Assembly (NCBI RefSeq): GCF_001548035.1
Contig: NZ_AP014723.1
Span: forward strand, 1,736,001-1,800,000
From: Sulfurospirillum sp. UCH001
GTDB taxonomy: Bacteria > Campylobacterota > Campylobacteria > Campylobacterales > Sulfurospirillaceae
DNA length: 64,000 nucleotides
Direction: 5' to 3'
Both the position numbers and the translations under genes were made by a program. The notes beneath the pieces were generated by a model that was given only the letters and a program-made list of their open reading frames with translations, did no database searches and had not been told where the DNA came from. Positions 3,795-16,192 of this stretch are shown here, piece after piece; position 1 is the first letter of the stretch, and each line of letters begins with the position of its first letter.

Positions 3795-5030
3795 TTATCT
3801 CATAATAAATGATGTTGGTGTGAAAGTATTTTTAGTAAGAGGGAAGCGCCTTACGATGAAATAACCCATACTATCGTTATAATCGTCAATCGTCCCTGCT
3901 CCTGAAAACTTCTCAGGCTCTCCATTCTTGTCGAATACTTGCTGTTCTAAAGCTTCTGTACCTTTAGGGCATTTATTGGTGTTGATAAGATAACGTCCGT
4001 GAGACAAAAGACCATTGACTGAATTAACTCTATCAATAATACGTCCATTTGCTTGTGGTGCTTCAATTATAAACCCTGCATCACGTAGTATTTGAATATC
4101 TGACTTGGTAGCATTTGAATGTCCACTATTTCCGCTTGCATCTGGGAACATTACTACTTTATTCGTTGGATATATTTTGCGGATATTCGTTGGTATTGTG
4201 AACGTGTCTTTACTCTCTATTTCGTCCACTCTTATGACTACATTGCCTCTTATAACGTGAATTGTAGATACACACCCACCAACGTTAAAGTCTTGACCTA
4301 TAAGTAACGTATCGTTCTCTTTGGCTTCTTCATTGCTGTGATGTTTGTGTCTATCAAAATAGCTATAAACTGTGCCACTTGTTAGATTTACAAATCTTCC
4401 TTCCATATACGCTTCAAGAAGATTAGGAGGATAGCTGTTTTGTAAATCTTGGATAAAGTCTTGTGGCAAAAACGGATTATCTAAAGTTTTTGCACGAATA
4501 ATCCTACCCATTTGCATTTTTTCAAATAACTCATAAGCTCCTGCAAAACCTTCGGGGGTTGTCGTGTTAAACATTTGGCGTACATTACCTTTACGCAAAC
4601 GACCTTGGAGCTTTTTATATGCCATTAACACTATTTCTTTTTTGACTGTATCCATTTCATCTGTTCCAATGAACGCAGCATTAACACCGATTAGTCTTTG
4701 CCAGTTTTCCAAAGAGCGCATGAGTATTTTTGTTTCGCCATTTTCAAAACGTATTCTAAGATTCGGTTGTGGAGATTTAACAAGCGTATGTTCTATGTCG
4801 TTATCTTCTAAAAACGATGTCATATCAGGGATAAGAATGTCGTGCAATAGTGGAGCGGTAGGCTCTAGTAATATGCCTGTATGCCCTACGTTCTTTGAGG
4901 CTAAATCGTAGGCTTTACATACAAAAGAAAAAGTTTTTCCTGCTCCATACCCTGCTAAAAGTAGTAAGTGGCGAGTAGTATCATCTAAAAGGAATTCTTC
5001 TTGATGGGGCAATAATTCAATCACGCCCAT
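3795..5030 (-). CDS. Phage terminase large subunit
   Basis: A 411-residue packaging motor with both expected domains. The ATPase has a Walker A variant GYGAGKT (residues 27-33), Walker B IGTDEMD (121-127) and a coupling motif NTTTPEG (155-161). The C-terminal RNase H-like nuclease shows LLIGQDFNVG with candidate metal ligand Asp247, and later VVMFPDASG. It cleaves concatemeric phage DNA and translocates it into the procapsid through the portal. The start overlaps the small-subunit gene by 14 bases. All key motifs appear intact, so the gene is probably functional. Confidence 0.93.
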   Translation of the reverse strand: MGVIELLPHQEEFLLDDTTRHLLLLAGYGAGKTFSFVCKAYDLASKNVGHTGILLEPTAPLLHDILIPDMTSFLEDNDIEHTLVKSPQPNLRIRFENGETKILMRSLENWQRLIGVNAAFIGTDEMDTVKKEIVLMAYKKLQGRLRKGNVRQMFNTTTPEGFAGAYELFEKMQMGRIIRAKTLDNPFLPQDFIQDLQNSYPPNLLEAYMEGRFVNLTSGTVYSYFDRHKHHSNEEAKENDTLLIGQDFNVGGCVSTIHVIRGNVVIRVDEIESKDTFTIPTNIRKIYPTNKVVMFPDASGNSGHSNATKSDIQILRDAGFIIEAPQANGRIIDRVNSVNGLLSHGRYLINTNKCPKGTEALEQQVFDKNGEPEKFSGAGTIDDYNDSMGYFIVRRFPLTKNTFTPTSFIMR

Positions 5031-11763: not shown

Positions 11764-11780
11764 ATTACAGTAACTGTAAT
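11764..11780. promoter_or_regulatory. Repressor operator O1
   Basis: ATTACAGTAACTGTAAT is a perfect 17-bp palindrome around one central base. It is the consensus of five related sites in the prophage. It lies eight bases before the first leftward gene and would block that promoter or its early elongation. Confidence 0.8.
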
Positions 11781-11798
11781 AAAAAGTTTCTTAAATAT

Positions 11799-11815
11799 AT
11801 TTCAGTAACTGTACT
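11799..11815. promoter_or_regulatory. Repressor operator O2
   Basis: ATTTCAGTAACTGTACT keeps the CAGTAACTG core of O1 with two arm mismatches. Its centre is 35 bp from that of O1. A leftward -10-like TATATT (plus-strand 11794-11799) abuts it, so binding here should stop leftward transcription. Confidence 0.75.
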
Positions 11816-11824
11816 TTTACATTT

Positions 11825-11841
11825 GTTACAATTTCTGTAAC
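11825..11841. promoter_or_regulatory. Repressor operator O3, overlapping the repressor promoter
   Basis: GTTACAATTTCTGTAAC keeps the arms but has a divergent centre, so it is probably the weakest site. It contains TACAAT (11827-11832), the likely -10 of the repressor gene. This suggests autorepression at high repressor level. Centre spacing from O2 is 26 bp. Confidence 0.65.
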
Positions 11842-11856
11842 TTTAAAGGATAAAAA

Positions 11857-12513
11857 ATGACATTAAAAGAAAAGCTTAGATTCTTACTTGATGGATACGG
11901 CAGAGGTGGAAAGGCTAAACTGGCTGAGTATTTAGAGGTAAGTCCAAACTATATTACTCGCTATGCAGAAGAACAGTATAATGATACATTTTTACCTTCA
12001 AAGTATTTCAAAAAAACGGCTGATTTTTTTGGTGTAGAACCCACATATTTTTTAGATGATGAAATTACGACAAAGCCTGTTAGAACTGTTAAAGTTATTG
12101 GAACTGCATCATGTGGTGGTTTAGATTTAAACCATTTTCAATGTAATAGATTTGCATTATTTAATGGAGATGACTATAACGAAAGATACTATTGTGTAAT
12201 TGCAAATGGAGATAGTATGTCTCCAGAGATTGATGATGGTGACGAAGTAATATGTGATCCGCAGGCAGAAATTATTAATGGTGATATGGTTCATTACACA
12301 ATAGGAAATGAAAGCGCTTTAAAGGTGTATTTTAAAGATGAAGATGCATATATAGTTCAATTTGTACCTTATAACCCTAGTGATACGTTTAAAACTAGAA
12401 CTGTTAGATTAGATGACGATTCAGTAGAGATAAAAATGGCTAAGGTAATATCCGTAAATAAAAGAAAGACAAATAATAGATTGGCAAGATTAAAACTTAT
12501 AGGGAGAGCGTAA
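11857..12513 (+). CDS. Phage CI-like repressor (HTH plus S24 peptidase)
   Basis: 218 residues. The N-terminal helix-turn-helix covers about residues 15-38 (GGKAKLAEYLEVSPNYITRY). The C-terminal LexA-like S24 domain has nucleophile Ser120 in GDSMSP and general-base Lys156 in ESALKVY. The cleavage site is probably TASCGG, Cys86-Gly87, in place of the usual Ala-Gly. It should dimerise on the 17-bp palindromes around it and be cleaved upon RecA activation, inducing the phage. An AAAGGA ribosome site precedes the ATG. It heads the lysogeny operon. Confidence 0.93.
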   Translation: MTLKEKLRFLLDGYGRGGKAKLAEYLEVSPNYITRYAEEQYNDTFLPSKYFKKTADFFGVEPTYFLDDEITTKPVRTVKVIGTASCGGLDLNHFQCNRFALFNGDDYNERYYCVIANGDSMSPEIDDGDEVICDPQAEIINGDMVHYTIGNESALKVYFKDEDAYIVQFVPYNPSDTFKTRTVRLDDDSVEIKMAKVISVNKRKTNNRLARLKLIGRA

Positions 12514-14783: not shown

Positions 14784-14800
14784 ATTACAGTAACTGTATC
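14784..14800. promoter_or_regulatory. Repressor operator O4
   Basis: ATTACAGTAACTGTATC shares 15 of 17 bases with O1. It sits over the -35 region of the leftward promoter of the 47-codon gene, 3 kb from the repressor-proximal operators. Confidence 0.8.
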
Positions 14801-14818
14801 TTTTTTAAGTTTTATTTA

Positions 14819-14835
14819 ATTACAGTTACTGTAAC
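14819..14835. promoter_or_regulatory. Repressor operator O5
   Basis: ATTACAGTTACTGTAAC is the O1 palindrome read from the other strand, with one change at the last base. Its centre is 35 bp from that of O4, the same spacing as O1-O2. A rightward -10-like TCTAAT follows at 14838-14843, so it probably controls the recombination operon. Confidence 0.8.
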
Positions 14836-15041
14836 ATTCTAATCAGCGAAACAAAAAAGCTAGTCCAACCACTTGGAAGCGATAGGACTTAAAAATAAAA
14901 TGCGCCAAATGAGTGAAAGCAGATTGAAAAGGGTCTGCGCCATACATGCCCACTTCGCTTATGTGGGGTTGTAGATGATAAGCGATTTATAAAGCCTATT
15001 TAGTCCGACCGTAGGCTTTATAAAGTTTAAAAGGAGAGACG
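14836..15041 (+). promoter_or_regulatory. Structured 5' leader of the rightward early operon
   Basis: 206 bases between operator O5 and the first gene hold at least four stems. They are AGTCC (14862) with GGACT (14885), a GCAGA/TCTGC hairpin, CCCAC (14949) with GTGGG (14963), and a 13-bp perfect inverted repeat TTTATAAAGCCTA (14986-14998) / TAGGCTTTATAAA (15012-15024). The loop of the last exposes AGTCCGACC (15002-15010); AGTCCAACCA at 14862 is a near match. The arrangement suggests attenuation or protein/RNA control of the operon. Confidence 0.55.
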
Positions 15042-15194
15042 ATGAAAAGACGTATCAAAAGTAAGATAAAAAAAAGAGACATTTATATTTTATTGCACCA
15101 TAATCTAAAACAAATGCTTAGGATGCAACGACTTATAGAATTTACTTTTATATTACCTAATAAGTCAGATTTTACAATTAAGGAGAAAAGATGA
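15042..15194 (+). CDS. 50-residue basic protein, first gene of the recombination operon
   Basis: The frame begins MKRRIKSKIKKRDIYILLHH and has an AAGGAG site six bases upstream. It is highly basic at its N terminus. Its TGA overlaps the next ATG as ATGA. No family is recognised. As the first gene after the structured leader it could be an early regulator or nucleic-acid-binding peptide. Confidence 0.55.
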   Translation: MKRRIKSKIKKRDIYILLHHNLKQMLRMQRLIEFTFILPNKSDFTIKEKR

Positions 15195-15436
15195 GAGATG
15201 GCGTAAAGGCACAAGTAGATCAAGCAGTAGAATCTGGTTATCTAAGAGGTGACGAGCTAGAAAGTGTTAAAGAAAATTTATTTCACAACGACGAAGTAAA
15301 AATATTGATCATCCCAAAAGGAACGACTATTAAAATAAATGGTATCCCCTTTACATTAAAAGAGGATACGGAGGTTTATGGGTTAGTGTCTAATTTAGAG
15401 TTGGCATTCAGAGAGCATGAGGTTAGTTCATCCTAA
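15191..15436 (+). CDS. Hypothetical early phage protein (81 aa)
   Basis: 81 residues. The N terminus is acidic and helical (GVKAQVDQAVESGYLRGDEL). The C-terminal half is beta-rich (VKILIIPKGTTIKINGIPFT). No family is recognised. The start is coupled to the 50-codon gene upstream. Its 3' end overlaps the opposite-strand Cas2-like gene by 9 bases. Confidence 0.55.
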   Translation: MRDGVKAQVDQAVESGYLRGDELESVKENLFHNDEVKILIIPKGTTIKINGIPFTLKEDTEVYGLVSNLELAFREHEVSSS

Positions 15437-15730
15437 ATGCTTTCCTAGCCAAGTAGCACAATCACCTTTAAAACCTTGCCAATGATAAGATTTATTAGTT
15501 ATGTCTACTACTAAAATTACATCATTGCTATCAATAGCTGTTTGAAGATGGTCTCTTGCTTGTTGTGTATTATATTTAGATTTTATTATCCAAGTAGAAT
15601 CTGCACAATGCCAAGTAGAACCATCACTTAATCCACGTATACGGTCGTATAAACCAGAGTAGTTTTGCCCTTTATCTTTACCAACAGCACCACCTTTATT
15701 CAAATCATACGTAATCAACAAAGCATTCAT
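15428..15730 (-). CDS. SinR-family Cas2-like fold protein
   Basis: 100 residues from the ATG at 15730, which has AAGGAG upstream; a longer frame exists without support. MNALLITYDLNKGG, then YSGLYDRIRGLSDG, STWHCADSTWIIKS and SNDVILVVDIT follow the small ferredoxin-like family annotated 'SinR family'. Those proteins resemble Cas2/VapD-type folds. It is the only leftward gene inside a rightward operon and has its own promoter. That is typical of a moron or cargo gene expressed in the lysogen. Nuclease activity is not established; no cas1 is present. Confidence 0.7.
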   Translation of the reverse strand: MNALLITYDLNKGGAVGKDKGQNYSGLYDRIRGLSDGSTWHCADSTWIIKSKYNTQQARDHLQTAIDSNDVILVVDITNKSYHWQGFKGDCATWLGKHLG

Positions 15731-15769
15731 TCTAAAAACTCCTTGTGTGTATTTTGTATAGGCAAAACC

Positions 15770-15775
15770 ATTATA
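15770..15775 (-). promoter_or_regulatory. -10 element for the SinR-like gene
   Basis: Minus-strand TATAAT (GGTATAATGG), with TTCACT 17 bases upstream as a -35-like hexamer. It lies about 40 bases before the ATG at 15730. No phage operator overlaps it, so the gene is probably expressed in the lysogen. Confidence 0.65.
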
Positions 15776-15806
15776 CCACGAGGAGCTTCTAGAGTGAAAA
15801 CTCAAT

Positions 15807-15880
15807 AAAACACACTATGAATACAGCGCAGACACTGATCATCGGTCACTAGGCATAACGGGGTGACGGTAGTGTGTTTT
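15807..15880. ncRNA. Stem-bounded element A (74 nt)
   Basis: Ends form a perfect 11-bp stem, AAAACACACTA with TAGTGTGTTTT. An inner GTCAC (15845) / GTGAC (15863) stem lies inside. It is the first of three elements of 73-74 nt with 86-nt start-to-start spacing. It is not a tRNA (no TPsiC loop). Confidence 0.5.
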
Positions 15881-15892
15881 AACCTTCCACTG

Positions 15893-15966
15893 AGAACATG
15901 ACACATTCAACAACAATATATTAAGTAGTGTTTATTTGATGAAAACAATGGTTTTGTGCGTGTTCT
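15893..15966. ncRNA. Stem-bounded element B (74 nt)
   Basis: Ends form a 12-bp stem with one bulged A and one G-T pair (15893-15905 with 15955-15966). It shares CATTCAACAA (15904-15913) and GGTTTTG (15950-15956) with element C. Confidence 0.5.
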
Positions 15967-15978
15967 GATAGAGGGTTT

Positions 15979-16051
15979 ATTTGATGGCATTAAGCATTCA
16001 ACAATAGCACATGTTAATTCGAGAAAAAAGGTTTTGCACGTGCCATCAAGT
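15979..16051. ncRNA. Stem-bounded element C (73 nt)
   Basis: Ends form an 11-bp stem (15979-15989 with 16041-16051), perfect over TTGATGGCA/TGCCATCAA. It contains CATTCAACAA (15995-16004) and GGTTTTG (16030-16036) as in element B, which points to a duplicated origin. Confidence 0.5.
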
Positions 16052-16060
16052 TTTTAAATG

Positions 16061-16176
16061 GTGAGTAGTCAAGTGGACAAAGGACGTAAGGGTGCAGTCC
16101 AGCGTAGCAAATAAAAACCCAAGTCGAGTGTCGTAATGCGCCAGCAAAGCCAAAAGGCAATGGGCTACTCACTTTT
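16061..16176 (+). ncRNA. Stem-bounded element D (112 nt) with T-run
   Basis: GTGAGTAGTC (16061-16070) pairs with the 10 bases 16163-16172, one of them G-T. Inner stems include GGAC (16082) / GTCC (16097) and GCC/GGC around 16148-16157. TTTTT follows the outer stem, so this could end an RNA transcript covering A-D. No gene is seen in 15806-16204 other than these structures. Confidence 0.45.
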
Positions 16177-16192
16177 TAAGAACTTACACAAA

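What the first reader, a model, noticed from the sequence alone, without database searches (positions are those of the whole stretch)
15428..15775. Cas2-like SinR-family gene inserted antisense with its own promoter
It is the only leftward gene in a rightward operon and has a near-consensus -10. It is placed directly beside the RNA-element array. These traits suit an independently expressed cargo gene, possibly a toxin, RNase or defence factor. A functional link to the adjacent structured RNAs, as in type III toxin-antitoxin systems where an RNA array neutralises an RNase, is a tempting but unproven idea: element A begins 32 nt upstream of its -10.
Basis: inference. Interest (0 to 1): 0.7.

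Follow-up and report, generated by a model that had tools for sequence, protein, structure and literature searches.

The report
Lone Cas2/VapD-like prophage cargo gene
A small Cas2/VapD-like gene, probably for a nuclease, sits backwards with its own promoter in a prophage operon; it is part of a 780-base insert that happened to land in an RNA array, so the suspected toxin-RNA partnership is not supported, but the same gene recurs as solitary, backward-facing cargo in phages and plasmids of many bacterial phyla.

Summary
A 100-aa gene (15428-15730, minus) with its own extended -10 (TGGTATAAT), RBS and terminator-like sites opposes the rightward early operon of a Campylobacterota prophage. It belongs to phrog_1090, a family annotated erratically as "SinR" or "Cas2". 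An AlphaFold model (pLDDT 85) matches Cas2 and BPSL1038, and an aspartate and a serine matching the published VapD catalytic pair are conserved in 37/37 and 36/37 homologues. The host has no cas1.

The RNA link (type III toxin-antitoxin) is not supported. A related phage carries the same array (87% identity) uninterrupted: the gene lies in a 780-bp cassette (15025-15804) flanked by ATAAA. Two further prophages have array elements without the gene, and none of about 50 other homologue loci has the array.

Antisense placement is a family habit: in all 12 annotated phage maps read, the homologue opposes its operon (early operons, P2 Z region, next to a P2-like portal gene). dN/dS is 0.04-0.21 in 8 of 13 close pairs. 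Repressor operators lie at the rightward operon's start, none at this gene's promoter.

Best reading: a single-gene moron expressed in lysogeny, probably a VapD/Cas2-type nuclease for superinfection exclusion or another lysogen benefit. Activity and expression are untested.

The parts
15428..15730 (-). Cas2/VapD-like gene, 100 aa (phrog_1090 family); putative catalytic D9 and S45
15770..15798 (-). promoter: TTCACT-17-TATAAT with extended TG (-35 at 15798-15793, -10 at 15775-15770)
   Evidence: similar stretch in L042 and L073
15739..15744 (-). ribosome-binding site AAGGAG, 8 nt before ATG
   Evidence: read directly
15342..15369 (-). terminator-like hairpin downstream of the gene (11 pairs, T-rich tail); a second at 15327-15308
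   Evidence: 4 found in region, 1.1 expected
15025..15804 (.). 780-bp cassette absent from L092/L089; ATAAA on both sides (15020-15024 and 15805-15809)
15042..15194 (+). cassette ORF, 50 aa, with RBS; stop overlaps the next start (ATGA)
   Evidence: no convincing family match
15191..15436 (+). cassette ORF, 81 aa, convergent with the gene, 9-nt overlap; weak match to phrog_35189
14986..15024 (+). hairpin of the RNA array, left of the cassette; directly joined to element A in L092
15806..15881 (+). array element A (covarying outer stem); neighbour, not part of the gene's cassette
15890..16052 (+). two copies of array element B; not part of the cassette
16058..16180 (+). array element C; same outer stem in L092, interior differs
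14785..14834 (.). two repressor-operator-like palindromes TTACAGTWACTGTAA upstream of the rightward operon
   Evidence: 5 in window, 0.24 expected
11765..11840 (.). three operator-like palindromes between the leftward early genes and the repressor gene (11857-12513, +)

Best explanation
The gene is an autonomous prophage cargo gene (a moron). Shown: it lies in a 780-bp cassette within the RNA array that a related phage lacks, carries its own promoter and RBS with terminator-like sites, opposes the early operon, and encodes a small protein predicted to have the Cas2/VapD fold, with an aspartate and a serine matching VapD's catalytic pair. Inferred: its promoter has no repressor operator, so it is expressed in the lysogen while the rightward operon is repressed; on induction, rightward transcription collides with it and silences it. 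Inferred: the product is a dimeric nuclease (metal dependence unknown) that cuts RNA or DNA and helps the lysogen, most likely by hindering competing phages. It is not coupled to the neighbouring structured RNAs.
For: Empty site in L092/L089 with the array intact. Array elements without the gene in L087 and G015; gene without the array in all other homologue loci held. In 12 of 12 annotated maps (Enterococcus, Lactococcus, Staphylococcus, Mannheimia, Pasteurella, P2-like E. coli and Klebsiella phages) the gene opposes its operon; both immediate neighbours are opposite in 10 of 12 against 14 of 100 other genes in the same maps (hand count, Fisher p 1.8e-6). P2-EC53 copy in the Z region between inverted repeats beside a 'putative lysogenic conversion protein'; Klebsiella P2-like copy beside the portal gene, which borders the A-Q defence hotspot of PMC9122126. 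dN/dS 0.04-0.21 in 8 of 13 close pairs. D9 37/37, S45 36/37, matching the VapD catalytic Asp/Ser of PMC11980593. Model pLDDT 85; Cas2 and BPSL1038 among the best PDB matches. No cas1 in the host. Operators at the rightward operon and none at this promoter.
Against: No expression, toxicity, nuclease or defence data. Fold matches are modest (Z about 8, Foldseek E no better than 0.025), and a shared fold shows no function. PADLOC gives only weak Cas2 matches, no defence-system call. BPSL1038, a relative by fold, was a DNase but was reported non-toxic to nematodes (PMC10491678). The five Enterococcus pairs have dN/dS 0.39-0.70. Many upstream regions of distant homologues show no clear sigma-70 promoter. 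The empty site comes from one phage type (L092 and L089 are near-identical there), so insertion rather than loss is inferred.
Confidence: 0.5

Rival explanations
1. Type III-like toxin-antitoxin: the protein is an RNase neutralised by the neighbouring RNA array.
For: Adjacency (element A 32 nt from the -10) and folded elements.
Against: Array intact without the gene in L092/L089, elements without the gene in L087 and G015, and no array at any other homologue locus held; the empty site shows that the adjacency follows from where the cassette lies. The upstream repeats that TRF found at a few other homologues are short, AT-rich or two-copy.
Confidence: 0.03
2. Type II toxin with a protein antitoxin, like VapXD, VapYD or VapWD, the partner being the convergent 81-aa ORF.
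For: VapD-type fold and residues; small convergent ORFs often overlap the gene's 3' end.
Against: The convergent ORFs are of several unrelated kinds; the 81-aa ORF has no relative in phages or in the genus. About half of VapD homologues lack an associated partner (PMC11980593). Known VapD antitoxins were not searched for directly.
Confidence: 0.12
3. Cas2 mimic that blocks spacer acquisition by poisoning Cas1-Cas2.
For: Cas2 fold.
Against: No cas1 in this host; the putative catalytic residues are conserved, which a decoy would not need.
Confidence: 0.05
4. Autonomous moron with a host-directed or phage-regulatory role other than exclusion (for example mRNA turnover, control of induction, plasmid or prophage maintenance).
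For: Also found on 4.9-kb ColE1-type plasmids and other small plasmids.
Against: Copies in the P2 Z region and bordering the P2 A-Q hotspot suggest competition between phages, though not exclusively.
Confidence: 0.3

Closest known systems
phrog_1090 (PHROGs, unknown function; members annotated SinR, Cas2, CRISPR-associated endoribonuclease or hypothetical)
   Same: 37 of 37 aligned homologues match; the window protein at E 2.7e-18.
   Different: The window protein has a 7-residue insertion after YDLNK; no function is recorded for the family.
VapD (HP0315, VapXD, VapYD, VapWD; PMC11980593)
   Same: Cas2-like ferredoxin fold; conserved aspartate on strand 1 and a serine before strand 3; many VapD also stand alone.
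   Different: Not retrieved as VapD by sequence; no VapX/Y/W partner identified; found as phage and plasmid cargo.
BPSL1038 (PDB 7vxr; PMC10491678)
   Same: Best profile hit in the PDB (E 0.15) and a structural match (Z 7.1); its SSTAW turn resembles DSTW.
   Different: Described mainly from Burkholderiaceae; weak E-value; its D11(X20)SST spacing differs from D9-X35-S45.
Cas2
   Same: Fold; 18 of 37 homologues match Pfam Cas2.
   Different: No cas1 in the host; stands alone, not in a cas operon.
Type III toxin-antitoxin (ToxIN)
   Same: Small putative nuclease beside folded RNAs.
   Different: Array and gene do not co-occur; the array belongs to the operon without the cassette.

Membership tests
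phrog_1090 | profile match over most of the length | tested here: met
   E 2.7e-18, residues 1-84
Cas2 (CRISPR adaptation) | encoded with cas1 in a CRISPR-Cas locus | tested here: not met
   no cas1 in the genome
Cas2/VapD superfamily | ferredoxin-like Cas2 fold | tested here: met
   model pLDDT 85; Cas2, BPSL1038 and VapD among matches; Z about 8 is modest but Cas2 fills most top rows
VapD | catalytic Asp and Ser | tested here: met
   D9 37/37, S45 36/37 (PMC11980593); equivalence judged by position and secondary structure, not by superposition on a VapD structure
VapD | nuclease activity | not testable with these tools
   needs purified protein
VapD type II toxin-antitoxin | adjacent VapX, VapY or VapW antitoxin gene | tested here: inconclusive
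   no conserved same-strand partner seen; VapX/Y/W profiles were not run
Type III toxin-antitoxin | RNA antitoxin array co-inherited with the toxin gene | tested here: not met
Prophage moron | accessory, absent from a related phage at the same site | tested here: met
   empty site
Prophage moron | own transcription signals, apart from the lytic operon's control | tested here: met
   promoter, RBS, terminator-like sites; no operator at the promoter; by sequence only
Prophage moron | expressed during lysogeny | not testable with these tools
   needs RNA-seq

The most novel reading that the evidence does not exclude
phrog_1090 is a widespread single-gene VapD/Cas2-type nuclease that prophages and small plasmids use as an exclusion system, switched off by head-on transcription from the phage's own lytic operon, without any antitoxin.
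Probability: 0.3. Interest if true: 0.65.

Novelty: new member of a known kind. Interest (0 to 1): 0.4.

Why it matters
A family that databases label as 'SinR' or 'Cas2' is shown to be solitary, antisense phage cargo found in many phyla, with VapD catalytic residues conserved. That makes it a simple candidate for a one-gene prophage defence or lysogen-benefit protein, testable in a laboratory E. coli strain. It also clears up a tempting link between this gene and a structured RNA array, which now stands as a separate finding.

Tried and rejected
Type III toxin-antitoxin link: rejected on co-occurrence and empty site. Two phylum-search hits (L020, L021) look spurious, and L019 is a Cas2-like sequence matching weakly (E 0.004). 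Tandem repeats near homologues: only a few short or two-copy ones. A first orientation count on unannotated loci was too noisy because short antisense ORFs were called. Pattern hits L088 and L091 lie inside a long ORF and are chance matches. Rfam: no match in the window at gathering scores. The phrase 'SinR family protein' with phage occurs in no paper of the library, and no experimental study of this family was found. STMMW_20121 of PMC7067206 is an analogous antisense, independently transcribed prophage gene, not shown to be a homologue. The single-sequence PDB hits to designed TIM barrels are low-complexity chance.

Full report
Observation. The gene is a 100-aa minus-strand ORF at 15428-15730 with AAGGAG 8 nt before its ATG and a TTCACT-17-TATAAT promoter with an extended TG, scoring above all 100 shuffles of its upstream region. 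Two terminator-like hairpins lie on the minus strand at 15369-15342 and 15327-15308. A length-greedy ORF call shows only rightward genes otherwise between 11857 and 23785. The window lies in a 2.6-Mb single-contig genome; the gene's surroundings are also held as a 37.5-kb IMG/VR provirus contig.

Family. The protein matches only phrog_1090 (E 2.7e-18). tblastn found 18 phage records and 67 plasmid records with it as query, and 82 phage records with a plasmid homologue as query. Profile-guided scans gave 22 viral contigs and 26 genome contigs of Pseudomonadota, Bacteroidota, Bacillota, Actinomycetota, Patescibacteria, Verrucomicrobia and Chloroflexota by their titles. In its own phylum it is sporadic: 9 of 397 genomes at E 0.001, a few of them doubtful. 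An alignment of 37 members keeps Y8, D9, L10, Q22 and D67 in all and S45 in 36. 18 members match Pfam Cas2.

Structure. With that alignment AlphaFold2 gives pLDDT 85 and a ferredoxin-like order of elements. Foldseek's best PDB matches are Cas2 proteins, with BPSL1038 in the top ten and VapD HP0315 lower, none better than E 0.025; the VIA second look gives Z up to 8.1 with Cas2 on top and BPSL1038 at 7.1. The tool warns that Z near 8 may be only a common arrangement; the agreement of fold, Cas2 sequence matches and the two top PDB profile hits, BPSL1038 and a Cas2, makes the superfamily assignment reasonable. VapD's catalytic residues are an aspartate and a serine (PMC11980593), and the family conserves one of each at the corresponding places.

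The array is not a partner. A pattern from array element B found other phage contigs. In L092 and its near-duplicate L089 the array is present at 87% identity and runs without a break from the 14986-15024 hairpin into element A. The window instead has 780 bp there (15025-15804), bounded by ATAAA on both sides, holding two small rightward ORFs and the leftward gene with its promoter. L087 and G015 carry relatives of elements A and B, in other orders, without the gene, and G015 has no phrog_1090 match in its genome as held (88% complete). Scanning all loci held, no other gene-bearing locus has element A or B. The 32-nt spacing is thus a consequence of where the cassette lies. That L092 shows the older state is inferred, since the comparison has only one empty-site lineage.

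Cargo habit. In all 12 annotated phage maps read here the homologue opposes the operon around it. Both immediate neighbours are opposite in 10 of 12 (Klebsiella phi4.1 and SpT99F3 have one same-strand neighbour), against 14 of 100 other genes in the same maps by hand count (Fisher p 1.8e-6); the records are not independent, six being Staphylococcus phages. Sites differ: beside antirepressor or recombination genes, in the replication region of phi13, the P2 Z region between inverted repeats (the R18C form of that stretch in 100 of 5426 E. coli genomes at 80% coverage or more), and next to the portal gene of a Klebsiella P2-like phage, which borders the A-Q hotspot of defence genes (PMC9122126). 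Close homologue pairs outside Enterococcus have dN/dS 0.04-0.21; five Enterococcus pairs have 0.39-0.70.

Regulation. TTACAGTWACTGTAA occurs five times in the window against 0.24 expected: three beside the repressor gene and two upstream of the rightward operon, none at the gene's promoter. No plus-strand terminator-like site was found between 14551 and 16700, so transcription of the induced operon should run across the gene. Over 49 homologues, 10 upstream regions hold a sigma-70-like site at p 0.05 or better (2.5 expected; combined p 5e-4). The expression pattern itself is inferred. A published parallel is an antisense, independently transcribed Salmonella prophage gene (PMC7067206).

Conclusion. 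The gene is an autonomous prophage cargo gene of the Cas2/VapD superfamily, new as a locus but a member of a catalogued, uncharacterised family. Its most likely role is a nuclease that serves the lysogen against other phages; this last step is inference.

Noticed in passing
14986-15024, 15806-16180; L087 9360-9990; L071 about 4390-4770: An array of structured RNA elements recurs in other phages or prophages related to this one, in different orders, with covarying outer stems (8 of 19 pairs of element A have a double change among 4 sequences); some neighbouring elements in L087 and G015 look T-arm- or tRNA-like. No Rfam match in the window.
   Followed up: partly
11765-11840 and 14785-14834: Five copies of a palindrome TTACAGTWACTGTAA mark the immunity region and the start of the rightward operon.
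   Followed up: partly
15744-15805: The stretch around the gene's promoter resembles those of L042 and L073 (TTGAGTTTTCACTCTA...TATAAT), suggesting that the gene travels with its promoter.
   Followed up: partly
L008, L035, L078, L080 upstream of the gene: Several Firmicutes homologues have a short hairpin (such as TTATCGCTACTGCGATAG) directly after the -10, which may stabilise the mRNA.
   Followed up: no
L086 (PSV3 record) and L078 (phi 13): The upstream DNA of a 'Pseudomonas phage PSV3' fragment shares its promoter and repeats with Staphylococcus phi 13, which suggests contamination of that record.
   Followed up: no
L087 9213-9288: A tRNA-Met (cat) lies close to the RNA array in this prophage.
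   Followed up: no
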